A stretch of 29,236 nucleotides of DNA from IMG/VR virus record IMGVR_UViG_3300042691_041402, positions 1 through 29,236 of that record. One strand, written 5' to 3'. Positions 39-28,402 of the stretch are shown here, in pieces (the stretch's first letter is position 1; the number at the start of each line of letters is the position of its first letter). Below the pieces are notes generated by a model, which made no database searches, was not told the DNA's origin, and was given only the letters and a program-made list of their open reading frames with translations. This DNA comes from a virus. A program made the translations under genes and the position numbers.

Positions 39-815
39 TTAGAAATTCGATTCAGTTCCTTTATCATCATCTAATAACTTATTAATTATTTCGTCTCTTC
101 TTTCAGATTTAAATCTATGATAATTTGTAGAGTTCTCACTGTCCACAATATAAATGATACTTGGGTTCAAAATGTTAGTGAAGTACTTAAACTCTACTTT
201 CAATTGAGCATTACCAGGTACTGAAGTACTAATATAAGGTGTAATTTCTTTTATATCAAAATAAACATCATCAAATGTCAAAACAAATTCTTCATTATAT
301 TTCATAAATGAATCCATAAAAACATTTATTCTACCTAAAAGACTACCATGTTTTGAGAAAGTGGATGATTGTAGTACTTTACCAATCTTTTCACAATTAT
401 AGGCAGTGGAATCAGAAATATATTCAGATAGAATTTTACCATTCGATATAATGTTTTTAACACTCATCATGGATAATTGTTGAACTAACCTTCTAGACAT
501 ATTCTGAATGGATTCGTAATTGGTAAGTGAATTTGAATTATCAATAATATTAATAAAATTAACATTAGTACCTTTTTTAATTTCACTAAATATTACCCCC
601 TGAACATGTTGTTGTATTTCATTCTTGATAACACCAGAAACTTGCTTTAAATAATCTTGTTCAGGATATGATGAGACATTATTTGGTAGATTAATTGAAA
701 CATTACCTTTTATATAATTTGAATCTTCAACTTTTGTCTTCTTAAAGTATTTAAGTGATTCAAATTCAACATTGTTAAAATATAGTTGAAAAAATTTTTC
801 AAATTCAATTGTCAT
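39..815 (-). CDS. Unknown protein, 258 residues
   Basis: No family is recognised. The protein is soluble, with no signal peptide or membrane segment. The N-terminal third (EFEKFFQLYF, then an Asn/Ser-rich stretch) leads into alternating helical and beta-rich segments, and the C-terminus is charged (KSERRDEIINKLLDDDKG). Its ATG overlaps the TGA stop of the sigma-factor gene by the four-base ATGA arrangement, so it is translationally coupled to that gene and is the fourth member of the NADAR-methylase-sigma operon. The coupling makes the start at 815 firm. A virion or regulatory role is equally possible. Confidence 0.8.
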   Translation of the reverse strand: MTIEFEKFFQLYFNNVEFESLKYFKKTKVEDSNYIKGNVSINLPNNVSSYPEQDYLKQVSGVIKNEIQQHVQGVIFSEIKKGTNVNFINIIDNSNSLTNYESIQNMSRRLVQQLSMMSVKNIISNGKILSEYISDSTAYNCEKIGKVLQSSTFSKHGSLLGRINVFMDSFMKYNEEFVLTFDDVYFDIKEITPYISTSVPGNAQLKVEFKYFTNILNPSIIYIVDSENSTNYHRFKSERRDEIINKLLDDDKGTESNF

Positions 816-1426
816 GAGTTAAATAATTTACCATTTTGAGAGATATTTTTTAACATTTGCCTTCCTTTTTTTAGTTTGTACCAAACATCACCAGGTTTGC
901 AACCTATTTCCTCAGCTATTTCTTCATTAGAGAGACCTTTAAAATATCTCATAGTTATGGCCTTAGAAATATCTTCTGGTAATTTACTAATAAGAAGTCT
1001 TACCAATCTTGAGACTTGTTCTCTATCATAATCTTCTGTAAAATCAAAATCATGATTTACAGCAAAACTACCAGCCTCTTTCAAGGGAACTGATTTGTCA
1101 GGTGTCATCAATTTACCTCTACTATAAAGGCCATTTATATGATTATGTAAGCAAGCGACTATCCACCAAAAGAACTTTGCCTTTTCTGGATTATACTGTC
1201 TTATTTTTACAAATGAGTTACCAAGGACGGTCATAACAATATCTTCTAAATCCTCGTCATCGTAATAAGATAATCTTCTTTTTGCGGCAGTATAGAGTAT
1301 TGGTTTGTACTTCTGAAGCAGAATATCCCAGGAATTTTGATTACCATCAATTGCACTAGCAACTAATTTTTTATCTTCCTCATGTGTAGTATATTTAGGA
1401 CCTTTACGACCTCTTTTATTATTCAT
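812..1426 (-). CDS. ECF-like RNA polymerase sigma factor
   Basis: A 204-residue sigma-70 family protein of the two-domain type. Residues about 35-105 look like region 2, with the motif YYDDEDLEDIVMTVLGNSF and then the aromatic KFFWWIVACLHNHI helix that in sigma factors melts the -10 element. Residues about 145-197 look like region 4, a helix-turn-helix (LPEDISKAITMRYFKGLSNE, then EEIAEEIGCKPGDVWYKLKK) that would contact the -35 element. The N-terminus is basic (NNKRGRKGPKY). It is distinct from the gp55-like sigma at 17481, so the phage has two. Its ATG shares one base with the stop of the methylase gene (TAATG), indicating translational coupling. It probably redirects host RNA polymerase to a subset of phage promoters; which ones cannot be told from sequence. 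Confidence 0.85.
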   Translation of the reverse strand: MNNKRGRKGPKYTTHEEDKKLVASAIDGNQNSWDILLQKYKPILYTAAKRRLSYYDDEDLEDIVMTVLGNSFVKIRQYNPEKAKFFWWIVACLHNHINGLYSRGKLMTPDKSVPLKEAGSFAVNHDFDFTEDYDREQVSRLVRLLISKLPEDISKAITMRYFKGLSNEEIAEEIGCKPGDVWYKLKKGRQMLKNISQNGKLFNS

Positions 1427-2379
1427 TAATTTAATTTGTTAAAGTTCTCATCATAATTCATAATCAACAATTCAATGCCTTTTGCCTGTTCTTTCTTAAT
1501 ATCTGAGTTGTTACCACCTTGTGCAGAACTACGAAATACTTCTTTTTGTGTCCACCTATATTTATCTCTTGGAAGTAATTCTTCAAGTAATGGAAAATAA
1601 TAATATGAAAGTGACCATCTACACTTAGTTTTCTTTAAAAGTTCTAACAATCTTCTGTGAGAGGCGGGTCCAAAAACACCTTCATCATCAGCACCATACC
1701 AAAATAGTCTCTTTGCGTCATCTTCACCTTTATTTTCATTAAATCTAGCATATGGTGGATCTAAATATAGATATGTATCTTCTGAATCATATTTTGAAAT
1801 AAGTTCTTCAAAATCGATATTATAAAACTCAGTAATTGATTGTAATTTACTTGTGTAGGTATTACTTTTTAACTTTTTAATAAGAACTTCTAACTTTAGC
1901 CTATCCTTATCTTTTTTGTATCCATTAAATCCAGCACCTCTTGGATAAACTGAGTTATGAGCCGATGTAATTAAAAATGCATAAACCGCGGCTTTTTCAA
2001 AGTCACCTATCTCAAAATTCATATTATCAAGAAAATCATTCTTTGTATATGTCTTATAAACACCTTTATAAAAATCCCATTTTTCTAATGGAGACTTTAA
2101 ATCTGTATAAAGAATATTAAAAGGTTTTGATAGATTTTCCAAATATGGAATAAACTTCTCAGGTTCTGAACAACACTTATATAAATTGACTTGGTGACGA
2201 TTTTTATCATTATAGATTACTTGTTCAAACTTTAAGTTATCGTCATCCATATACGTTCCCATTGATCCAGAAAACGGTTCTAAATAGGTTTTGATGGTAC
2301 CATCTTTAGGTATTTGTTTATTGATAAAGTCAATAAATGTGTTTGAAGACTTGCCTCCGAAATAACTTATAACAGACAT
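1426..2379 (-). CDS. dam: DNA adenine N6-methyltransferase (Dam / T4 Dam type)
   Basis: A 317-residue class I SAM-dependent methyltransferase of the D12/Dam family, which methylates adenine N6 in a short recognition site. Visible landmarks are the N-terminal FGGK (residues 7-10), the SAM-binding motif EPFSGSMG (34-41) and the catalytic motif YLDPPY (205-210). The order SAM motif before DPPY is that of alpha-class enzymes. It sits between the NADAR gene (8 bases upstream) and the sigma gene (one-base overlap). No restriction endonuclease is next to it, so it is more likely an orphan methylase protecting phage DNA from host restriction or marking DNA for packaging. The target site cannot be deduced; GATC is the default guess for the family. 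Confidence 0.92.
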   Translation of the reverse strand: MSVISYFGGKSSNTFIDFINKQIPKDGTIKTYLEPFSGSMGTYMDDDNLKFEQVIYNDKNRHQVNLYKCCSEPEKFIPYLENLSKPFNILYTDLKSPLEKWDFYKGVYKTYTKNDFLDNMNFEIGDFEKAAVYAFLITSAHNSVYPRGAGFNGYKKDKDRLKLEVLIKKLKSNTYTSKLQSITEFYNIDFEELISKYDSEDTYLYLDPPYARFNENKGEDDAKRLFWYGADDEGVFGPASHRRLLELLKKTKCRWSLSYYYFPLLEELLPRDKYRWTQKEVFRSSAQGGNNSDIKKEQAKGIELLIMNYDENFNKLN

Positions 2380-2387
2380 ATTTATAC

Positions 2388-2885
2388 TTATTTTTTTAAA
2401 TTTTTTATAAAATCCTCTAGTGAAGGTTTTTTATCAACTTTTTTTGACTCATCTCTTACACGCATTAATATTTTACCAAGATGATTCTCACCTTCACCAT
2501 TACTAACTCCCCAGAATTTATCACCCCACCAGTTTGATTCAATTAACTCTTGATCTTCTGTTGATAATAACATTTCTTTTAGATCCTCATTTTTAAACTT
2601 CTCTCTGATACCCCAAAGCATTACATCTAATTTAACATCTTCCCAATCTTTTCTAAGCTTAAGAATTTTACCAAACTGTTTAACTTTAGCAGGATCAGTC
2701 ATTTTTGCAATCAACTCACGACAATCGATGTATGATACATATTTACCATCAATCTGTTGGTCATTTTTTATTTTCATAGCTACATAATAATGCTCTACTG
2801 AAGGATATTTAATACCTTGATGTTCGATTGTTACTGGATGAAAATTTGAAAGAAATCTCCACCTACCTGTAAAAGAGTTTATCAT
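2388..2885 (-). CDS. NADAR-domain protein (YbiA-like), probable ADP-ribosyl-guanine hydrolase or N-glycosidase
   Basis: A 165-residue protein covering one full NADAR domain. The N-terminal block INSFTGRWRFLSNFHPV, the YPSVEHYYVAMK block (27-38, with conserved E31) and the C-terminal block WWGDKFWGVSNGEGENHLG (119-137) followed by MRVRDE are diagnostic. Known members act on N-glycosidic bonds: YbiA/RibX-type proteins cleave riboflavin-pathway intermediates, and several NADAR proteins remove ADP-ribose from guanine in DNA, reversing DarT-type toxins. Clustering with a DNA methylase favours a nucleic-acid repair role; that is inference. The C-terminal 20 residues are lysine-rich. It is the first gene of its operon, downstream of the tmRNA terminator. 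Confidence 0.9.
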   Translation of the reverse strand: MINSFTGRWRFLSNFHPVTIEHQGIKYPSVEHYYVAMKIKNDQQIDGKYVSYIDCRELIAKMTDPAKVKQFGKILKLRKDWEDVKLDVMLWGIREKFKNEDLKEMLLSTEDQELIESNWWGDKFWGVSNGEGENHLGKILMRVRDESKKVDKKPSLEDFIKNLKK

Positions 2886-2984: not shown

Positions 2985-3356
2985 TGGAGATGTCCGGTAA
3001 CGAACCGGAGTCTTCCTCAGTTAAAAACGTTTAATCGTCACAAGCTTAGAAAGTTTTTCTATAACTTACAAAATAGATAGTTGTTTCGACTCAAAAACAC
3101 TCTAACAAAAAACTATCACTATTTATACTGTTGTGATTCAGTGTGAATTTTTAGAATGTATCCTAAGATTAGGCTACTTCAAGCTCATTCACAGTGAGCA
3201 AGTTGTTTTGTAGAGCAGCTACTAAATCTTCACTGGTTCCTACTTCAGTTGTAACGTTGCCGTTTACTAATTTTGATAATTTATTTTAATCGGACTTTAC
3301 CAAACCGATGCCTGCTTAATCATCTTTACTCTGCGAATCTATTCAAAATCATCCCC
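2985..3356 (-). ncRNA. ssrA: tmRNA (ssrA), phage-encoded
   Basis: The 5' end reads GGGGATG and the 3' end CATCTCC plus discriminator A (2985). They form a 7-bp acceptor stem with a G3-U70 wobble pair, the alanine identity element. The T-arm follows the family pattern: stem TCCGG/CCGGA with loop TTCGTTA. The 5' text GGGGATGATTTTGAATAGA, then ATTCG, matches the conserved tmRNA start with a small insertion. TTAAGC near the 5' side pairs with GCTTG near the 3' side as helix P2. After TTAGTA an open tag frame (3264 down to 3169) begins AAC GGC AAC and encodes 31 residues, NGNVTTEVG...LTVNELEVA, ending at TAA inside a small hairpin (CCTAA/TTAGG). CCA is not encoded, so it must be added. The role is rescue of stalled ribosomes by trans-translation with host SmpB. 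The total of 372 nt is normal for tmRNA. Family membership is firm; the resume codon is inferred. Confidence 0.9.
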
Positions 3357-3369
3357 AGATTTGATTTTA

Positions 3370-3390
3370 CAAATATACACTTTATATATT
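3370..3390 (-). promoter_or_regulatory. Probable promoter of the tmRNA gene
   Basis: On the minus strand an AATATATA box (3390-3383) and a TATATTTG box (3377-3370) stand 26 and 13 bases before the mature 5' end. TATATTTG fits the Bacteroidota housekeeping -7 consensus TAnnTTTG. AATATATA is the box that recurs before many genes in this window. Either or both could drive the tmRNA. Confidence 0.5.
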
Positions 3391-3845: not shown

Positions 3846-5210
3846 TTATTTTAATTCAATTTTTATATAGTTATCATCAAATATTATATCTGGATCCATA
3901 TTGTGTTTACTCAAAAGCTCTTCAAGAGTTCTCAAATCCTTATGTATTATAATTGGGTCAGGATCATCTACATCTATTTTTATAAAGGCAATACCGTACT
4001 CATTAACCATTTTAGTTTCCAAATTGAATATATTAGATTTAAAATCTGAAATAAATGTTTTATATTTTCTCATAATCGCCTCATCAAATCCTACTTTTTT
4101 AACTGTAGGTAATTCTTCCCAATTTACCTTGAGACAAGCATTTGCTAATCTTTCAAGATATGATATATTTTGACTTTCATTTCTGGTATGTTCAGAAAAA
4201 TATCCAACTGATATATTGGTACATTCTGGAATCTCATCTATGAAAGAAGCTGAGTCAGTGTATACACCTGTTGAATCTAGTGAAATAGAGAGACCTGATT
4301 TATTTAATTCTTTAGCTAAAGATTCCGCAAACTGATTTGAACAACACTGTCTACCCAATTGATGAGTTATAACTGAATGATAATTTCTTCTATCAAATGA
4401 CACACACCTTTTAACACCTTGTAAGTGTACAATTTCTTCAAAGACACCAGCTACTTGATGCGAACCGATACCACCTCTTTCCTCACCTATAAAGAAATAA
4501 TAAATACCTGGTATATTATGAGCCATCATATAAAGCATTACTGATACACCCGATTTATCATCAGCTCCTAAAATAGAAGTTTCATCAGTTGTCAACATTT
4601 CATCACCATTAGCCAAAATTGTACTATATACAGTAACATTTGATTGAGTCCTATCTGCAGTATCTAAATGTGATGTAAACATGGTCTGAGATTTTCCAAT
4701 TATCTTATAGTAATTACCAAACTGATCTTTTTCTAAGCTAGGTAGAAATTTAACTACTTCCTCTTCATGTCCGTGCGGATATGTCTTTGTTGTAAGTGAC
4801 AAAAATGTTGACCTAACATCTTTAGGATTATATGAGAAAGTACTAACTTCTACTTTTTTAGAACTATTTTTACGAGACTGTATTATAGGAAGACCTCTTT
4901 TCAAACGATTATAGGCCATGGTAAAATCTTTAATCTCATTTTGAGTAAATGTTTTTTCTCCAAAAACAAGTCGTAAAAACTTACCAACTTTCATTCTTTG
5001 TACATTTTTACCTATAGTAACATCAAAATGCCAATCAGTTTTAGAAACATCAATTCTTTCTATATTCAACTCATTTTTCATTAAATAGTTGCCATCCAGA
5101 GTTCTTATAAGAGCATCAGGAATAGGGCCGTTTATATTATCTACAATATCGTGTAATCTTTGAGAAAGAAAGGGAATAGCACTTTTTTGAACTGGGTCTG
5201 TATCCGCCAT
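3846..5210 (-). CDS. Di-zinc metallopeptidase of the M20/M28/M42 type
   Basis: A 454-residue protein whose middle has all five metal-ligand positions of co-catalytic di-zinc exopeptidases: H181 in TSHLDTAD, D217 in LGADDKSG, the E243-E244 pair in GEERGG, D273 in SFDRRNY and H341 in SEHTRNE. The first glutamate of the pair is the expected catalytic base. Residues 1-135 form an extra N-terminal domain (WHFDVTIGK, KVGKFLRLVFGEK) not part of the peptidase core, and residues 375-454 form a C-terminal extension. No signal peptide, so it is cytoplasmic or packaged. Family enzymes are aminopeptidases, di/tripeptidases or deacylases; the substrate is unknown. It lies between the NFACT-R gene and the acidic protein and may share their transcript. 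The ATG at 5210 is the first in frame. Confidence 0.85.
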   Translation of the reverse strand: MADTDPVQKSAIPFLSQRLHDIVDNINGPIPDALIRTLDGNYLMKNELNIERIDVSKTDWHFDVTIGKNVQRMKVGKFLRLVFGEKTFTQNEIKDFTMAYNRLKRGLPIIQSRKNSSKKVEVSTFSYNPKDVRSTFLSLTTKTYPHGHEEEVVKFLPSLEKDQFGNYYKIIGKSQTMFTSHLDTADRTQSNVTVYSTILANGDEMLTTDETSILGADDKSGVSVMLYMMAHNIPGIYYFFIGEERGGIGSHQVAGVFEEIVHLQGVKRCVSFDRRNYHSVITHQLGRQCCSNQFAESLAKELNKSGLSISLDSTGVYTDSASFIDEIPECTNISVGYFSEHTRNESQNISYLERLANACLKVNWEELPTVKKVGFDEAIMRKYKTFISDFKSNIFNLETKMVNEYGIAFIKIDVDDPDPIIIHKDLRTLEELLSKHNMDPDIIFDDNYIKIELK

Positions 5211-5234: not shown

Positions 5235-5630
5235 TTAATTTTCAATTATAACTTCTTCTGCATTTTTATAGTCTACAGAAACTTGACCAGGTTTCATGTC
5301 AGAAGACTTCTTAACAAACTCTGCTTTACAATAAACAACTTTTACCTTACTTCCCTTTAATGCCTTTGAGTTCTTAGCGGCGAGTTTTGCAACTTCTTGT
5401 ATAACATCACTCATTGGTAAATTTTCCTTTACTCTTATTATTATATGACTACCCGGAACACCTGAAGCATGAAACCATAAGTCATCATTATTTGCCATAT
5501 TTGTTGTTAGAAAGTCATTTGATTCAGCGTCTCTTCCTATAAGTACTTCAAATCCATTAATACTTTTTATCTGTATGTTAGGAAATTTATCCTTTTTGGA
5601 TTCTAAAAACTTTTTAAATCTTTTTACCAT
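5235..5630 (-). CDS. Stand-alone NFACT-R domain protein (RqcH/Rqc2-related)
   Basis: A 131-residue protein with a short basic leader (MVKRFKKFLESKKDKF) and then one NFACT-R (DUF814) domain. The blocks are GFEVLIGRDAESND (25-38), the signature DLWFHASGVPGSHIIIR (about 50-66) and the tail VVYCKAEFVKKSSDMKPGQV (about 98-117). In RqcH/Rqc2, NFACT-R is one of the modules of a factor that binds obstructed large ribosomal subunits and recruits tRNA-Ala for alanine tailing. The NFACT-N, HhH and coiled-coil parts are absent, so this is a single-domain relative, possibly RNA- or ribosome-binding. It is the first gene after the capsid terminator and 2 kb from the phage tmRNA. Domain identity is secure, function is inference. 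Confidence 0.85.
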   Translation of the reverse strand: MVKRFKKFLESKKDKFPNIQIKSINGFEVLIGRDAESNDFLTTNMANNDDLWFHASGVPGSHIIIRVKENLPMSDVIQEVAKLAAKNSKALKGSKVKVVYCKAEFVKKSSDMKPGQVSVDYKNAEEVIIEN

Positions 5631-21386: not shown

Positions 21387-21764
21387 ATGGCAGTATTTGA
21401 CTTCAAAGATCACTACATAGGGTACCAAGGACACCCAAGATTCATAGTAAATAAAATAGTTGAAGATGACATAATTAGAGTCATTATTCAAAAATATGAA
21501 ATGTTGATTTTTACTAATAAAGGTGAGCTATTAGGAGATCCTGATTTCGGGTGTGATTTGCCTAAATTACTTTTTCAAACAAAAGTATCAGCCGAAAGTG
21601 TAAGAAAATTAATTCTTCAACAGGTTAAAAAGTATATTCCCGAGTTGTCCACAACAAATTTCACACTTCAGGCTCAGTTTTTTCAAGATCCGGAAAATTA
21701 TCAAGATGTTCTTCAGATTGATTTTCAATTAGCCGACTACGAAGTATACGCACTAATAACTTAA
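21387..21764 (+). CDS. 25: Baseplate wedge subunit (gp25-like)
   Basis: A 125-residue protein of the GPW/gp25 family, the small subunit of the baseplate wedge that contacts the sheath start. The family signature YEMLIFTNKGELLGDPDFGC, then DLPKLLFQTK, is evident, as are the helix VRKLILQQVKKYIPEL and the final strands (DVLQIDFQLADYEVYALIT). It sits 10 bases after the gp44 gene, an unusual pairing of replication and baseplate genes. Its TAA stop shares three bases with the stop of the convergent giant gene. An AATATATA box (21375-21382) overlaps the gp44 stop, only 4 bases before the ATG. Confidence 0.92.
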   Translation: MAVFDFKDHYIGYQGHPRFIVNKIVEDDIIRVIIQKYEMLIFTNKGELLGDPDFGCDLPKLLFQTKVSAESVRKLILQQVKKYIPELSTTNFTLQAQFFQDPENYQDVLQIDFQLADYEVYALIT

Positions 21765-24700
21765 TCTGGGTAATAATAATTTATTATTGTAAATGCAGGT
21801 GAACCAGCAGTAGAGCTTGTTCCTAAAAGGAATCCTGGTACATCATTATTAAAAGCTCCTGTAACAGTCTGCAAAAGACTCGCACCATCATATCTCTTAA
21901 ATATTCTCGTGCCTGTCATACTGTAATATGTAGCAAAAAGTAATACACTTTGCCAGCTACTACTACCAAGACGAGTATGATAGTAAGAATATCCAAACTT
22001 GCCTAAAGCATCATTAAACAATGTACTGACACTACCAAAGTTTCCACCAATTTTAACATTATCCGAATTCTCTATTATATAGACACCAGTATCAGTCAAT
22101 AATTGCTCTAAATCCAACTCGGCAGCCGGTTGGTAGTAAGCACCAAATTGACCAGCCCCAGTACCAGGTGTTCCAAAAGATTGGGTAGATGTAGTAGGGT
22201 AAGAAGTCAAGTTTACAATATTTCTAGTATAAATTACGTTATAATCAACACTGAGCTGACAATTAGTTGAAAATGTAACACCATAGTTAAGACCAGAAGC
22301 TAATTTAGATAAAATCTGATAGTTTAATGGAACATAGGCATTATTATTTTTAGAATTTCTTGCTTGTCTCCAGTTAGCCTTACCCCCACTAGTAACATCA
22401 CCTCTAACAGTGACGGTCACTGAATTACCAGCTAGTAAAGTTCCGGACCAGTTTACATCTTTACCATTTACTGTAGCACTACCTTGTGTACTTATAGCGT
22501 ATGCATTTTGCACAAATTCAAAATCACCACTTAATTCAATTCTAAAGCTCTTAGCAGTAAAGCTAGAGTTATTCGTAATCGTGAAAGGATATCCATGTTG
22601 AATAGATGGTAAAACTATACCATTGTCTGTTTTATAAGGTTGTGTAGTAGGATTACCATTTATATCCAAGAATCCTTGAGTAAATAGACCAGCTGTCATT
22701 GCCAAGTCAGGAACTTTATCAACATCCGCATAAACCACTGGAAGTGTAGCATCTCTGTATTGTTTAGTCGTAAGATTTGTGAATGCCTCAATCTCTTGTA
22801 TATCAAGTATACCTTTTATTTCAAAGTTTTTTCTATCTCTATAAATAGCACCATATCCATTTTCAGATGTAACCTCTATGACAAGATAAGGTGTTATATT
22901 AGAATCGACTGTGAAATTAAAAGGATTCAGATTATCGATATGTCTATATTCAGAAAATTTGTCAACAGGCACAAGATCGATTTCTTTCCAGTCAGTAATG
23001 TCGAGCCAATTATATCCAACACCCTCGTCTATTACAGGTGATGTAATTGACATAGTTGCACCAGATTGTCCGGTCCAGACATAAATAAGTCTATTCCACT
23101 TAACAACATCTCCCAATTTATAAGCGGTTCCATACAACCAATCTTGAGCATTTTCAAACTTTCTTGGATTGTTAGTTTTATTGTTATTAGTAACTGACTC
23201 ATATAACTTGTCATAGTATACTACTCTCTCTCCTACTTGATAATTTCTGAAAGCGTACCACTCTCTATAAATCTCATAAGTTCTTATATCGACTGTGTAA
23301 TAATCAGGTAATAAACTTGATGTTGGTGAACCTTCCACATAAAAATCTAAAACACAATTATATACAGTTGAACCACTATTCACCGGTAGTAAATATGCCT
23401 CATTAAGATCAAAAAGTATCGGTGTGAAATTCTGTCTCAAATTAATTATCTGAGCATCAAAAGTCTGATGACTAACTACTGTTCCACCAACAAAGTCAGC
23501 TCTACCAGTTATATCAAGTATCTTATGTGTTATAGGGATGATATTCTTTTGTAACCAATATTTTAAACCTTGTAACTTTTTCTGAACTTCTTCAAGTGTA
23601 TAATAAAGAATATTATTTCCTTCTTTATCTGTAATTCTAAATGTCAGATTAAATAGATTTGTATCTTCATAATTTTTGTTTGGAAATGTATGCTTTATAA
23701 AATCATTGTCTTTCCAACCCTCAACAGTGTTATCAAAAATATCTGGAATTTCAACTTTGAATAATTTAAAATAATTATCTGAATTTACATCAACATTTCT
23801 GTAATATTCATAAAGTTCCAAGTCATTGTAACCAAAGTAATTTATTGCATTAATAATTGATTTGTAACTACCGATGTAAGGATATATCATATTCTTCATC
23901 ATAAGCATCTCCTTTCTCTTCATGTTGAGGTAGTTCCAATCTATTCCCTCTTCTTTGATATCATATTCTTTAAAAATATAAACATCGTCTGACGAAATTA
24001 ATTTACCGATATTATTTAGCTCCACATGATACCTTATATCCTCAATTTCAGTTTGACCAAAAACATTAAATCTACCAATTTCAATAGGCCAGACTTTGAA
24101 TCTACAAGATAAGTATGTAGTCAAATTTGTACTTGGGAAATTCTCTATTATGGTATCTTCCGTTTCCAACATATCTACAGATTTAAAATAATCTACAATT
24201 ATTTCTCTACTAAAAATTTCTCGTATTTTTAAAAGATATCCATTGTTATTTGAAATATATTGTTTTTTCTTATTAGTAACATCAGTAACGAAAATAGCTA
24301 AATGCTGTCCTACTTTCAATCCTCTTGTATTTCCCAAACTATCTACTGTAAAATAACTTGTTGAATCATTACTTAATACTATCTTTCCGTATCTACTACC
24401 ACTAAACTCGTCTGTAAAACTTTGAAAACTTATTACATCATTATTTATTGATGTTGTGGTTATTGTGAAATCAACTTCTTCTTTTTTATAAAGTTGCAAT
24501 ATACTTCTCAATCCTCCTTCATCTGGTGAGTTGTATCCTAAAAACAGCTGTATGGGTTCTGGTACTATACTTATATCCTCATTATCATCAACAAATTCTA
24601 AATCATGTTCAATGTAATCGAAAACAGTTTGTTGATATTCAGGTAAAGATCTTTTTCCAATATCTCTGTTCGAACTCTTATTTAATATAATAGTAGTCAG

Positions 24701-27700
24701 CGGCTTTGGTCCATTATATGCCAACGCCCCAGTAGTCGGTAATTGATTTCCACTAAAATCATACATAAAAAACTGTGGAACATTATCTGAGAACCATTTC
24801 CAGTAAATACTCACGGTTGGTCCTCCATTGAAGTTTTCTCTTGGCCTTCTGATATATTCCCTTACATTTAACCAAAGGTAATCTCTATCAACATAGTCAG
24901 GATGTAGAGTACCGTAAAAGTCATCATTCGAGGATGTTGTGGATATTGTTTCAATGCCGAAATTACTACTTAATTGTACTTGTAACTCAACTACCTTTTT
25001 GGTAGAAGGTTGTATTGACCAAACACTTTTTCTATCCGGATTGTAAATTATCTTAGTCAGACTACCACCGACAAATGGCTCTATATGCTTCACTTGACCA
25101 GTAGGAGTATCTATAGATATGATTTGACTATTACCAGCGATATACATATCACCATCGAACTGATTTAAAGCCAATATACCATAATCACCAGGTGATGTAG
25201 TATAAATTATTGAGTCATCATCTACAAACACTGAATCAAAAGATAAATTTGTAGAAGAGTTCATACTACTATTGAAGTTATTAAATAATAAACTATTGAA
25301 AGTTCCTGTGGAAACTGAAGAAACAGATGTTACCACATTATTATCAATCTTTCTTAAAGAAATTCCATTTTCCCAAGTATATACAGCCTCATTTTCTGGA
25401 TCATAAGCCATTGAGTGACTAAAAGCCAGTATTGAAAAAGTAGTGTCTAAAGTTCTAGAACTACCATTGACTCTTGTGACATTGCCAAGTGTACCAATGT
25501 ACATTTTTGATTCAAAATCATTGAAAACCATATTAAATGAATTGAATCCTATATTTAATGTGTGTTCTGTATCTGTTACATCAAAAATAGATATAGTCGT
25601 TGAGTTTTTATATGATACATAGATATCACCATTAGAATTATTAAGTTGAATTGCAAATGGAGATGCAGGTAATGAAAAAGAAGCGATTAGTAAATTTATA
25701 TATGGGTCAATTTTATATAAAGCTGACTCACTTATTGCAAAAACATAGTTTGAAATAAAATTATAACAGAGTTGAATGCTTTGAGTCAATCCATCAATAG
25801 ATAAGTCACCAAGTGATAATCCATAAATTGAGTCATATATTCTTAGTTTATCACCTAGCACAAATATAGAATTAGTTGGCTCTATATAAACCAAGTCGAC
25901 CATGTTATCAACACCATCAAATTGATATGGTAAATAAGTATTTGACCAGACATATTCAATACTAAAAGATTGGTCAAATTGTTCATTACTATACATACCT
26001 TGTAAAAGACTCGGTGCAAAAGCGGGTGGACATCCTGTTTGGCCAAATCCAATAGTAAAAGCTACTGTTGTAAATGCAGATTGGTTACAAAGTGAATCTG
26101 TAAGTCCCCAAAAAGGTCCCTCATAACTCAAATTAATAACATCGGGATTCAGATAAAGTGAGTTGTACTCAATATTCTGTAATGTATAAAATGTCTTGTT
26201 TATACCTATTACTTGTCCAGTTGCAAATCCCATATCTTCAAGTGATTCACCACTAGCAGTACCAAGGAGAATCTCATTTGAGGTTATTAAAGCACCATGA
26301 TTGCCGCTATATTTTTTAATTATTCTATAGTTTTCAATACCAGGAAGACTCAATTTACCAACATTTATCTTTAAATTTACTCTCTGTTTTTGTTTTTTCA
26401 CATTAATCTTCAACGCATTTGCTGCTTTACTAACATAAATACCAAAATCATTTATAGTTTCAGACCAACTTTCTACCCAGTTCGATAATGTTGTTGAGAT
26501 ATCTGTATCAAATAACTCTTCATAAACTCTACCATTAATTGTAATTGTGAGAAGTTTACCAATATCATTGAAGACCACAACACTATGCTCTATATAAAAG
26601 TCAGCTGTCGAACCTACTTGTACGATAAAGTCTATTGGCACATTAGGGAAATCTGTTTTTAGTTTAATTGTATTATAATAAACTGAAGAGTAACCAACAG
26701 TCAAAAGTGTCGGTTGAATTCCTAAAGTACTCAGTTTTAAAAAGTGTCTAGTGAGCCAATTTCTTATTGTTTTATCAATAGTCCTTTGCATATCAACTAG
26801 TCCAGATGAATAAACCCACGCGACTCTTTCACTATAGACCATTTTATTGACTTTTAAGACTATTCCATATTCATCAATATCAGTAAATACTATATTGTAT
26901 TCCCAGTTATTAGATAAATCATAATTAAATTCTCTAACTAACCGGTCATAGGTTTCTATAGCCTTCTCATATACTTTCTTAACACTACCTATGCTGTGAG
27001 TGGATAATATCTGATCATAATAGTAATTTACTATTGCATAATTTTCCGGGTATACTAAGTCAGCTTTCAATTTATAATCATCATAATATAGATCAATATT
27101 AAATAACTTTAACTCTGATTTAAATCTCTCTGCTGCCAAAGCTAATGTTATATCAGATGACTGTGTATATGATTGTGTGAAATATATGTGGTCATTAGTT
27201 AGATAAATTTGACCCAGACCTAAATATTCATTTGTAATCAAACCTGTCGAAGTAGAAGGTTGAATCGGTAGATATGATGGAGATCCCCAGTAGAGTGATG
27301 AACCACTACTACCGATTGGAAAAATAGAATCCGTAGCACCAGACCAAGTATATGATTGAATACATTGATATATTTGATTCTGATATATAACTTGACTACC
27401 AGTCGCATAGTAAGTGAGTCTATTATTACCTTCAAAAGTTTTGATAGAACTTACTCTATAAAAATCTTTATTAAGTGCAGAATTTGGAACCTTAAACTCT
27501 ATACCTGGTACAAGTATATCCGGTATAGGGTCACCGAACTGTAGAACTTTCGAGTTTGAATCAAAAGTAATTGGACCTCTATATACTCTTGGTAAGTCGG
27601 TCCTTGTTATTACTTCAATTATCAGGGTACTATTAGTAGGTAAATTTTGAAGCTGATATTCATAATGAGTAATATCTAAAATATTTGGATTCTTGATTGT

Positions 27701-28402
27701 TACAACATCAACATCATCATATCTACCAGTAGTTCGAAAGTTATCATTTTTTTGTGTATTTACTAAATTCAATTTTCTATATTGATATAGCCTATCATAA
27801 AATGTTGGTTCATTCCAAAGAGAAAGGTTATCCTTTAATTGAGGTGTTATATAGTTATAAATTCCAATAATATCAACACCAGTGATGGTGACGCCTATAT
27901 AACTAGAAGGTGTATTATATGCTGTACTAAAATTACTTTCAAATGAATAATTATTCATCATCGATAATATCATAATAGCATTTTTCTTAGATGATATAAC
28001 ACAATAGACTCTATTAGTATCATTGAATTCAAATATTGATTTATTAAACCTAATAAAAGTTCCTAATTTGTATTTAGACTCTATATTTTTACCATAAACC
28101 CATTTAGAATAGTAGGACTTCTCTTGATTAACGGGTTCAATTTTAGTCACTGAATAAGTTGCAGCACCCTGATAAAAATGTAAACCATACTCATTAAATA
28201 ATTGAAATCTCCTAAGTGTGAGATGTTGTTCATTCTCATATTCGAAAGAGGGAATTTTTTCAAACAAGTAAAGAGCTTGTGTTTTGAAAGTATCACTAGA
28301 ATTTTCAGGAAATAAAATATCTCCCTCATATCTGTCTGATGTATCATTGTAACTAAAATTTAATGGATTTCCCTCTTTATCAAAGAATATCAAATTTTGC
28401 AT
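21761..28402 (-). CDS. Giant modular baseplate/tail protein, 2213 residues (gp7-like wedge plus propeller and binding modules)
   Basis: The largest gene here, 6.6 kb. Residues 1-700: beta-rich, including a chitin-binding-type-3-like patch at 330-385 (TGSQVIYQNQIYQCIQSYTW). Residues about 830-1150: a beta-propeller of YVTN/NHL type (YIEPTNSIFVLGDKLRIYDS, NNSNGDIYVSYKNSTTISIF, QFDGDMYIAGNSQIISIDTP). Residues about 1440-1640: a wedge-like helical region (MKRKEMLMMKNMIYPYIGSY, LQGLKYWLQKNIIPITHKIL) resembling large baseplate wedge proteins of T4-like phages. Residues 1715-1805: two further CBM5/12-like patches (YQVGERVVYYDKLYESVT and YKLGDVVKWNRLIYVWTG). Residues 1925-2010: a DUF11-like Ig domain. 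The C-terminus is Gly/Tyr-rich. Position next to gp25 supports a baseplate role, while the binding modules suggest host-surface contact. No frameshift is seen. Confidence 0.8.
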   Translation of the reverse strand: MQNLIFFDKEGNPLNFSYNDTSDRYEGDILFPENSSDTFKTQALYLFEKIPSFEYENEQHLTLRRFQLFNEYGLHFYQGAATYSVTKIEPVNQEKSYYSKWVYGKNIESKYKLGTFIRFNKSIFEFNDTNRVYCVISSKKNAIMILSMMNNYSFESNFSTAYNTPSSYIGVTITGVDIIGIYNYITPQLKDNLSLWNEPTFYDRLYQYRKLNLVNTQKNDNFRTTGRYDDVDVVTIKNPNILDITHYEYQLQNLPTNSTLIIEVITRTDLPRVYRGPITFDSNSKVLQFGDPIPDILVPGIEFKVPNSALNKDFYRVSSIKTFEGNNRLTYYATGSQVIYQNQIYQCIQSYTWSGATDSIFPIGSSGSSLYWGSPSYLPIQPSTSTGLITNEYLGLGQIYLTNDHIYFTQSYTQSSDITLALAAERFKSELKLFNIDLYYDDYKLKADLVYPENYAIVNYYYDQILSTHSIGSVKKVYEKAIETYDRLVREFNYDLSNNWEYNIVFTDIDEYGIVLKVNKMVYSERVAWVYSSGLVDMQRTIDKTIRNWLTRHFLKLSTLGIQPTLLTVGYSSVYYNTIKLKTDFPNVPIDFIVQVGSTADFYIEHSVVVFNDIGKLLTITINGRVYEELFDTDISTTLSNWVESWSETINDFGIYVSKAANALKINVKKQKQRVNLKINVGKLSLPGIENYRIIKKYSGNHGALITSNEILLGTASGESLEDMGFATGQVIGINKTFYTLQNIEYNSLYLNPDVINLSYEGPFWGLTDSLCNQSAFTTVAFTIGFGQTGCPPAFAPSLLQGMYSNEQFDQSFSIEYVWSNTYLPYQFDGVDNMVDLVYIEPTNSIFVLGDKLRIYDSIYGLSLGDLSIDGLTQSIQLCYNFISNYVFAISESALYKIDPYINLLIASFSLPASPFAIQLNNSNGDIYVSYKNSTTISIFDVTDTEHTLNIGFNSFNMVFNDFESKMYIGTLGNVTRVNGSSRTLDTTFSILAFSHSMAYDPENEAVYTWENGISLRKIDNNVVTSVSSVSTGTFNSLLFNNFNSSMNSSTNLSFDSVFVDDDSIIYTTSPGDYGILALNQFDGDMYIAGNSQIISIDTPTGQVKHIEPFVGGSLTKIIYNPDRKSVWSIQPSTKKVVELQVQLSSNFGIETISTTSSNDDFYGTLHPDYVDRDYLWLNVREYIRRPRENFNGGPTVSIYWKWFSDNVPQFFMYDFSGNQLPTTGALAYNGPKPLTTIILNKSSNRDIGKRSLPEYQQTVFDYIEHDLEFVDDNEDISIVPEPIQLFLGYNSPDEGGLRSILQLYKKEEVDFTITTTSINNDVISFQSFTDEFSGSRYGKIVLSNDSTSYFTVDSLGNTRGLKVGQHLAIFVTDVTNKKKQYISNNNGYLLKIREIFSREIIVDYFKSVDMLETEDTIIENFPSTNLTTYLSCRFKVWPIEIGRFNVFGQTEIEDIRYHVELNNIGKLISSDDVYIFKEYDIKEEGIDWNYLNMKRKEMLMMKNMIYPYIGSYKSIINAINYFGYNDLELYEYYRNVDVNSDNYFKLFKVEIPDIFDNTVEGWKDNDFIKHTFPNKNYEDTNLFNLTFRITDKEGNNILYYTLEEVQKKLQGLKYWLQKNIIPITHKILDITGRADFVGGTVVSHQTFDAQIINLRQNFTPILFDLNEAYLLPVNSGSTVYNCVLDFYVEGSPTSSLLPDYYTVDIRTYEIYREWYAFRNYQVGERVVYYDKLYESVTNNNKTNNPRKFENAQDWLYGTAYKLGDVVKWNRLIYVWTGQSGATMSITSPVIDEGVGYNWLDITDWKEIDLVPVDKFSEYRHIDNLNPFNFTVDSNITPYLVIEVTSENGYGAIYRDRKNFEIKGILDIQEIEAFTNLTTKQYRDATLPVVYADVDKVPDLAMTAGLFTQGFLDINGNPTTQPYKTDNGIVLPSIQHGYPFTITNNSSFTAKSFRIELSGDFEFVQNAYAISTQGSATVNGKDVNWSGTLLAGNSVTVTVRGDVTSGGKANWRQARNSKNNNAYVPLNYQILSKLASGLNYGVTFSTNCQLSVDYNVIYTRNIVNLTSYPTTSTQSFGTPGTGAGQFGAYYQPAAELDLEQLLTDTGVYIIENSDNVKIGGNFGSVSTLFNDALGKFGYSYYHTRLGSSSWQSVLLFATYYSMTGTRIFKRYDGASLLQTVTGAFNNDVPGFLLGTSSTAGSPAFTIINYYYPD

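What the first reader, a model, noticed from the sequence alone, without database searches (positions are those of the whole stretch)
2985..3356. Phage-encoded tmRNA with an atypical 31-residue tag
Seen: a complete tmRNA outline with a 7-bp acceptor stem carrying G3-U70, a T-arm, a P2 pairing, an open tag frame and a terminator. Known: most bacterial tags are 8-15 residues long and end in ALAA or a close variant, read by ClpXP. Here the tag is 31 residues (3264 to 3169), starts at an apparent AAC resume codon and ends in NELEVA. Inference: a phage tmRNA may keep ribosomes cycling during host mRNA decay, or attach a tag with a fate different from the host one, such as stability or a different protease. 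tmRNA genes are rare in phages.
Basis: partly seen in the sequence, partly recalled or inferred. Interest (0 to 1): 0.85.

Follow-up and report, generated by a model that had tools for sequence, protein, structure and literature searches.

The report
Megaphage tmRNA with long structured tag
This virus of (probably Bacteroidota) bacteria carries its own version of tmRNA, the RNA that frees stuck ribosomes and labels their unfinished proteins; its label is three times the usual length and its coding part contains conserved RNA hairpins, so standard gene finders overlook it although it is conserved across a whole group of giant phages.

Summary
The tmRNA is real. Rfam RF00023 aligns full length to window 3356-2982 (E=1e-10), but its 30.9 bits fall below the gathering score of 47, and ARAGORN misses it. 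Homologues lie at the same place (capsid - NFACT-R - peptidase - tmRNA - NADAR) in 34 of 39 capsid-matched viral loci with enough downstream DNA, including complete 634- and 642-kb Mahaphage genomes. Across 39 distinct sequences, acceptor, P2, PK1 and T-arm covary strongly.

Correction: by comparison with 105 Bacteroidota tmRNAs (UAA[A/C/U][C/U]|GGC, tag GENNYALAA), the resume codon is GGC at 3261, not AAC at 3264. The tag is Ala + GNVTTEVGTSEDLVAALQNNLLTVNELEVA (30 codons; 31 residues with the charged Ala). Relatives encode 27-30 codons, always open, always ending in A or V.

Not noticed before: the tag frame holds a covarying hairpin with a nearly invariant 12-nt loop (GAAGAUUUAGUA) and a second variable hairpin; most relatives also have a remodelled T-arm (6 bp, loop GGCAGUA). 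Large relatives encode SmpB, usually ClpP and a ClpX- or ClpA/B/C-like ATPase.

Best reading: an active phage trans-translation system whose long tag is a C-terminal degron matched to Clp proteases. Tag fate is inferred, not shown. A new variant of a known kind.

The parts
2985..3356 (-). tmRNA gene (372 nt, 5' end 3356, discriminator A at 2985; CCA not encoded)
   Evidence: RF00023 full length 1-374, E 1.2e-10, 30.9 bits; 39-sequence covariation
3350..3356 (-). acceptor stem 5' strand GGGGAUG (G3 of G3-U70)
2986..2992 (-). acceptor stem 3' strand CAUCUCC (U70)
2993..3009 (-). T-arm UCCGG-UUCGUUA-CCGGA; position 58 is U instead of A
3310..3337 (-). P2 5' strand
   Evidence: RNAalifold and pair counts
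3014..3045 (-). P2 3' strand
3272..3309 (-). pseudoknot PK1: P3 AUCGG/CCGAU, P4 UUUGGUAA/UUAUCAAA
   Evidence: sequence; pair counts across 39 homologues
3262..3266 (-). resume signal UAAAC (U -5, A -4)
   Evidence: matches 105 Bacteroidota tmRNAs; -4 A in 42/42 homologues
3172..3261 (-). tag reading frame, 30 codons: GNVTTEVGTSEDLVAALQNNLLTVNELEVA; resume codon GGC at 3261-3259; stop UAA 3171-3169
3210..3243 (-). hairpin H-A inside the tag frame (GUAGG...CAGU / GCUG.UCUAC)
   Evidence: covariation 0/500 shuffles, 94% cells paired
3220..3231 (-). 12-nt loop of H-A, GAAGAUUUAGUA, 41 of 52 identical, nearly all others within one base; contains UUAGUA|GCN, a possible second in-frame resume signal
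3183..3199 (-). hairpin H-B inside the tag frame (GCUCA CUGUGAA UGAGC); stem sequence differs between relatives
3370..3377 (-). Bacteroidota-type -7 promoter box UAnnUUUG (TATATTTG)
   Evidence: TAnnTTTG upstream in 33 of 50 homologues vs 4.5% in shuffles; consensus PMC9723704
2918..2952 (-). intrinsic terminator AACACCAAC/GTTGGTGTT + T run
   Evidence: sequence
5235..5630 (-). stand-alone NFACT-R protein (RqcH RNA-binding domain), syntenic with the tmRNA
   Evidence: Pfam PF05670 E 2.9e-17; RqcH structures 3e-19; 51 of 85 loci
3846..5210 (-). peptidase (phrog_4191; weakly PepT-like), syntenic
2388..2885 (-). NADAR-domain protein downstream of the tmRNA, syntenic
   Evidence: PF08719 E 2e-27; 39 loci

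Best explanation
The locus is a working phage tmRNA. It is transcribed from a host-type promoter, charged with alanine through G3-U70 and carried by SmpB into ribosomes stalled on broken mRNA. Translation then switches to the GGC at 3261 and adds Ala-GNVTTEVGTSEDLVAALQNNLLTVNELEVA. Ribosomes are freed during the long infection of a giant phage, when host and phage mRNAs are being cut. The tag is most likely still a C-terminal degron, but one matched to Clp proteases of the phage and/or host rather than to the host's YALAA preference. Hairpin H-A is an RNA element carried inside the tag frame, perhaps to pace decoding, hold the long tmRNA loop compact or bind a factor. Shown: gene, fold, frame, conservation, and SmpB/ClpP/Clp ATPases in relatives. 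Inferred: charging, use in rescue, degradation, role of the hairpins.
For: RF00023 full-length match. Homologues in 34 of 39 loci with at least 7 kb downstream of the capsid gene, and in complete 642- and 634-kb genomes. Structure: 57 pairs, 93.8% of cells paired, 264 double changes vs 84.5 shuffled, 0/500. G3-U70 kept. Resume signal and position as in 105 Bacteroidota tmRNAs. Tag frame: 0 stops in 36 distinct CDS while both other frames have stops in 36/36; tag lengths differ by whole codons. Last residue A or V in 52/52, with third base free. Phage SmpB in 7 of 15 records, with GxE(V/I)KS and the (D/N)K(R/K) C-terminal tail motif. ClpP in 6 of 9 records, ClpX in one, ClpA/B-like ATPases in the five checked. 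Promoter box 33/50 vs 4.5%.
Against: No expression, charging or tagging data. The record is a 29-kb fragment, so SmpB or Clp genes of this very phage were not seen. Unusual T-loops could weaken SmpB or EF-Tu binding. PK2-PK4 were not resolved. dN/dS over the tag is only about 0.55, and much of codons 6-17 is explained by RNA pairing.
Confidence: 0.72

Rival explanations
1. The tag is not a degron: it labels products so that they escape host ClpXP or go elsewhere (stability, localisation), so the phage uses tmRNA for ribosome recycling only.
For: No ALAA in this clade; acidic residue third from the end in many (ELEVA, PELV, ELEL[AV]); 3x host length.
Against: Terminal A/V in 52/52, the class known to keep degron activity at lower strength (LVA, AAV, ASV; PMC9097571, PMC11003136); relatives encode ClpP and Clp ATPases; the long Mesoplasma florum tag is a degron read by Lon (PMC9097571).
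Confidence: 0.2
2. The conserved loop of H-A is the real or a second resume site: UUAGUA|GCN starts a 14-16-codon tag in the same frame.
For: U at -5 and A at -4 as the frame rule asks (PMC2481249); same frame; loop nearly invariant at codon third positions although the phage prefers GUU for Val; ARAGORN calls the tag just after this loop in 2 of its 5 hits.
Against: The first site keeps host sequence, host distance from the 5' end and about 10 nt from PK1; the putative resume codon of the second site lies in the H-A stem and is GCN, UUU, AGC or UCG.
Confidence: 0.1
3. A decoy: the RNA titrates host SmpB or blocks host trans-translation, like the TLD-only RNA of mycobacteriophage DS6A.
For: Precedent that a phage TLD inhibits tmRNA (PMC4131195).
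Against: A decoy needs no 27-30-codon frame, resume signal or conserved A/V end; large relatives bring their own SmpB.
Confidence: 0.05
4. Relic or chance tmRNA-like sequence in an AT-rich intergenic region.
For: Below Rfam gathering, missed by ARAGORN.
Against: Synteny, covariation and open frame in dozens of distinct homologues.
Confidence: 0.01

Closest known systems
Bacteroidota tmRNA (ssrA), tag GENNYALAA
   Same: Acceptor with G3-U70, P2, PK1, UAA[A/C/U][C/U]|GGC resume signal at nt 94-100, tag beginning G-x-x-N; TAnnTTTG-type promoter upstream of the phage gene.
   Different: Host tags 9 codons ending ALAA; phage 27-30 codons without ALAA, with hairpins in the frame; T-loop remodelled in most phage copies; the phage tag pattern was absent from 395 Bacteroidota genomes.
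tmRNAs of huge phages (Al-Shayeb et al. 2020, PMC7162821)
   Same: Reported tmRNA and SmpB in huge phages; two 634-642-kb complete genomes (LR756502, LR745206) carry this same tmRNA.
   Different: That survey used ARAGORN, which finds 5 of 42 of this clade; the passages I read do not describe a long structured tag (supplements not readable here).
Mesoplasma florum tmRNA tag (AANKNEENTNEVPTFMLNAGQANYAFA)
   Same: A 27-residue tag, so tags of this length are not unprecedented; degraded by a non-Clp protease, Lon (PMC9097571).
   Different: Bacterial; sequence unrelated apart from a short NEV; in-frame hairpins were not examined here.
Two-piece tmRNA of marine phages (Melnitz, PMC9004378)
   Same: Complete phage-borne ssrA in a T4-like myovirus.
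   Different: Two-piece permuted, alphaproteobacterial origin, with a glutamine riboswitch; here one-piece and Bacteroidota-like.

Membership tests
tmRNA (RF00023) | 7-bp acceptor with G3-U70 and discriminator A | tested here: met
   GGGGAUG/CAUCUCC + A; kept in homologues with double changes at two pairs
tmRNA (RF00023) | T-arm, D-loop without anticodon stem, P2 helix | tested here: met
   helices 2, 3 and 8; T-loop sequence is atypical
tmRNA (RF00023) | PK1 upstream of the tag | tested here: met
   P3 99.5% and P4 77.6% of cells paired across 39 sequences
tmRNA (RF00023) | PK2-PK4 | tested here: inconclusive
   3' half is poorly aligned by the Rfam model; not resolved here
tmRNA (RF00023) | tag frame with resume signal (A at -4) and stop | tested here: met
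tmRNA (RF00023) | score over the Rfam gathering threshold | tested here: not met
   30.9 vs 47 bits; an annotation threshold, not a biological feature; homologues G001 and G004 and the more distant W03 and W05 exceed it
tmRNA (RF00023) | charging with alanine and rescue with SmpB | not testable with these tools
   SmpB genes present in large relatives
ALAA-type ssrA degron | C-terminal ALAA (host GENNYALAA) | tested here: not met
   ends ELEVA; clade ends [L/V/T/A/F/M][A/V]
two-piece (permuted) tmRNA | circularly permuted gene | tested here: not met
   5' acceptor strand precedes the tag and the 3' strand follows it

The most novel reading that the evidence does not exclude
These giant phages run a largely self-contained ribosome-rescue and disposal pathway: a tmRNA with a rebuilt D-loop/T-loop elbow matched to its own SmpB, a long structured tag read by phage-encoded ClpP with Clp ATPases, and an NFACT-R factor, with the invariant tag-frame hairpin acting as a regulatory or second resume signal.
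Probability: 0.2. Interest if true: 0.85.

Novelty: new variant of a known kind. Interest (0 to 1): 0.62.

Why it matters
It shows that phage tmRNAs are under-counted: a conserved clade-wide gene is mostly missed by ARAGORN and by Rfam's threshold. It offers a natural tmRNA whose tag frame is also a conserved RNA structure, which makes the old question of what fixes the resume codon and limits tag length testable. It also points to giant phages carrying tmRNA, SmpB, ClpP, Clp ATPases and an NFACT-R protein, i.e. taking over translation quality control. The long tag could be useful as an orthogonal degron.

Tried and rejected
AAC as resume codon: rejected, signal not conserved. Frame +1 (GCA...UAG): the conserved UAG is explained by pairing in H-A, and frame 0 alone is open throughout. 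Loop of H-A pairing with a distant segment (e.g. CUAAAU): checked by eye only, no consistent partner seen; left as unexplained. 5'-end DNA pattern in viral contigs: no hits. blastn of a distant homologue in the phage collection gave only chance pieces besides LR756502. The first automated end-finder (TTC T-loop only) failed for most relatives and so led to the 6-bp T-arm finding. Mycobacteriophage records with known tmRNA (AY129337, DQ398053, DQ398052) were not in the collection, so their tags were not compared.

Full report
OBSERVATION. The stretch 3356-2985 on the minus strand is a complete one-piece tmRNA gene. Default searches miss it: ARAGORN finds nothing in the window and no Rfam family reaches its gathering score. 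With an E-value threshold, RF00023 aligns over its full length at 3356-2982, 30.9 bits, E=1.2e-10, below the gathering score of 47. Folding energy is lower than all 100 shuffles, z=-2.9.

CONTEXT. The window is a 29-kb IMG/VR virus record with T4-like head genes (portal, head maturation protease, major capsid) and a clamp loader. The capsid protein is 64.5% identical to those of two complete Mahaphage genomes, LR756502 (642 kb) and LR745206 (635 kb), and these also carry a matching tmRNA. Al-Shayeb et al. (PMC7162821) place all their >634-kb genomes in the Mahaphage clade and predict Bacteroidetes hosts. A TAnnTTTG promoter box, the sigma-A -7 consensus of Flavobacterium (PMC9723704), lies upstream of 33 of 50 distinct homologues against 4.5% expected.

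HOMOLOGUES. Eighty viral loci were fetched by capsid. blastn of the tmRNA region finds it in about 50 records including the two Mahaphages. Of the 39 loci with at least 7 kb downstream of the capsid gene, 34 have it; for one of the other five (L052) the same contig has it farther away, just outside the stretch held. The order capsid - NFACT-R - peptidase - tmRNA - NADAR is largely kept. A tag-frame pattern found 85 stretches in viral contigs; in total 52 distinct full-length sequences with long tags were delimited. The pattern occurs in 0 of 395 Bacteroidota genomes. ARAGORN detects 5 of 42 regions.

STRUCTURE. On 39 sequences RNAalifold recovers acceptor, P2, P3 and T-arm. Counting 57 named pairs gives 93.8% of cells paired (81.9 shuffled), 264 double changes (84.5 shuffled), 0/500 shuffles; partners slid by 1-3 columns drop to 34-49% paired. 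Most relatives have a 6-bp T-stem with loop GGCAGUA or similar, while others keep 5 bp with UUCGAAU; the window has UUCGUUA. Copies with a canonical UUC T-loop mostly have GG in the D-loop and GGC copies mostly AG; this was read by eye, not tested statistically. The 52-sequence set was delimited with a script that required GGG...UCC ends, so G3-U70 there is partly by construction; in the blast-defined set it was not required but was favoured by the score.

RESUME CODON. In 105 Bacteroidota tmRNAs called by ARAGORN, nearly all resume at nt 94-100 with GGC after UAA[A/C/U][C/U]. These loci were fetched by a pattern for GE[N/T]NYAxAA-like tags, so they do not sample tag length, but the signal upstream of the tag was not part of the pattern. 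The phage copies have the same signal at nt 92-102. E. coli genetics shows that A at -4 sets the frame (PMC2481249); it is A in 42/42 phage regions for GGC.

TAG. The window tag is GNVTTEVGTSEDLVAALQNNLLTVNELEVA. Thirty-six distinct CDS have 27, 29 or 30 codons with no internal stop, whereas both other frames have stops in all 36. The last residue is A or V in 52/52 full-length sequences, with first base fixed, second C/T and third free, which points to protein-level selection. dN/dS over the whole tag is only about 0.55, as expected if RNA structure also constrains it. The most frequent bacterial tag length is 10 aa (PMC11915505); the Mesoplasma florum tag of 27 is a precedent for length and for a different protease (PMC9097571). 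More distant Mahaphages have other tags, read here from sequence: W05 GNNAEMRMAA (10), W03 DNVNSFEQSILNELFAPVEMAVAA (24), W04 GDYKMNAEDMMSIPTSLTGKVATESFVEDLVLA (33); W03 and W04 were read by hand.

HAIRPINS IN THE TAG FRAME. H-A (3243-3210) has stems such as CAGU/GCUG, CAAA/UUUG, CGCU/AGCG and CCGU/GCGG, 94% of cells paired, 36 double changes against 8.8 shuffled, 0/500. Its 12-nt loop GAAGAUUUAGUA is identical in 41 of 52 and nearly all others are within one base. The Val codons at the stem base and in the loop are GUA in 35/36 and 36/36, although the phage's Val usage is GUU 0.55 and GUA 0.29, so an RNA-level constraint overlies the coding. H-B (3199-3183) keeps position in most while its stem changes: GAUCUCU/GGAGAUC, GCUCUU/AAGAGC, GGAG/CUCC, GUUCUU/AAGAAC; this was not put through the shuffle test. 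I found no description of such in-frame hairpins in the papers that could be searched here; the standard P5 helix of tmRNA also overlaps the end of the tag (own knowledge), so overlap as such is not new.

PARTNERS. ClpP is found in 6 of 9 records, a ClpX over the cut-off in W03, and ClpA/B-like double AAA+ ATPases in W01, W02, W04, G002 and G004 (below equivalog cut-offs and several cut by the locus end, so the subtype is open). None of these is in the window, which is a fragment.

MECHANISM. Most likely ordinary trans-translation with a phage tmRNA. Whether the tag is destroyed, by which protease, and what H-A does are inference. C-terminal variants LVA, AAV and ASV remain degrons of graded strength (PMC9097571, PMC11003136), which is why a degron is preferred over a stabilising tag.

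VERDICT. It is a new variant of tmRNA, conserved across a clade of giant phages and poorly seen by current tools.

Noticed in passing
window 5235-5630 (-): Stand-alone NFACT-R protein (RNA-binding domain of the RqcH ribosome quality-control factor) encoded next to the capsid gene, in 51 of 85 loci; a full-text search for NFACT-R with phage found no paper describing one.
   Followed up: partly
window 2388-2885 (-): NADAR-domain protein directly downstream of the tmRNA in many relatives; NADAR enzymes act on ADP-ribose derivatives (own knowledge), possibly counter-defence.
   Followed up: partly
window 3846-5210 (-): Peptidase gene (phrog_4191, weakly PepT-like) kept between NFACT-R and tmRNA; could recycle peptides of tagged proteins.
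   Followed up: partly
L332 (LR756504.1, about 37.6-38.7 kb): A ClpX over the NCBIfam cut-off in the 636-kb phage, whose tmRNA tag ends AVAA, unlike the window's clade: tag ending and phage unfoldase may co-vary.
   Followed up: partly
window 3220-3231 (-): The nearly invariant 12-nt loop of the tag-frame hairpin has no identified partner or ligand.
   Followed up: partly
window 21761-28402 (-): A 2213-aa ORF without any PHROG match.
   Followed up: no
window 812-1426 and 1426-2379 (-): A sigma factor with ECF-like region 4 and a D12 adenine methyltransferase beside the tmRNA module.
   Followed up: no
LR756500.1 at 44340-44891 and LR756504.1 at 146269-146691: ClpP matches with one in-frame TAA or TGA: frame breaks or stop recoding in these phages.
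   Followed up: no
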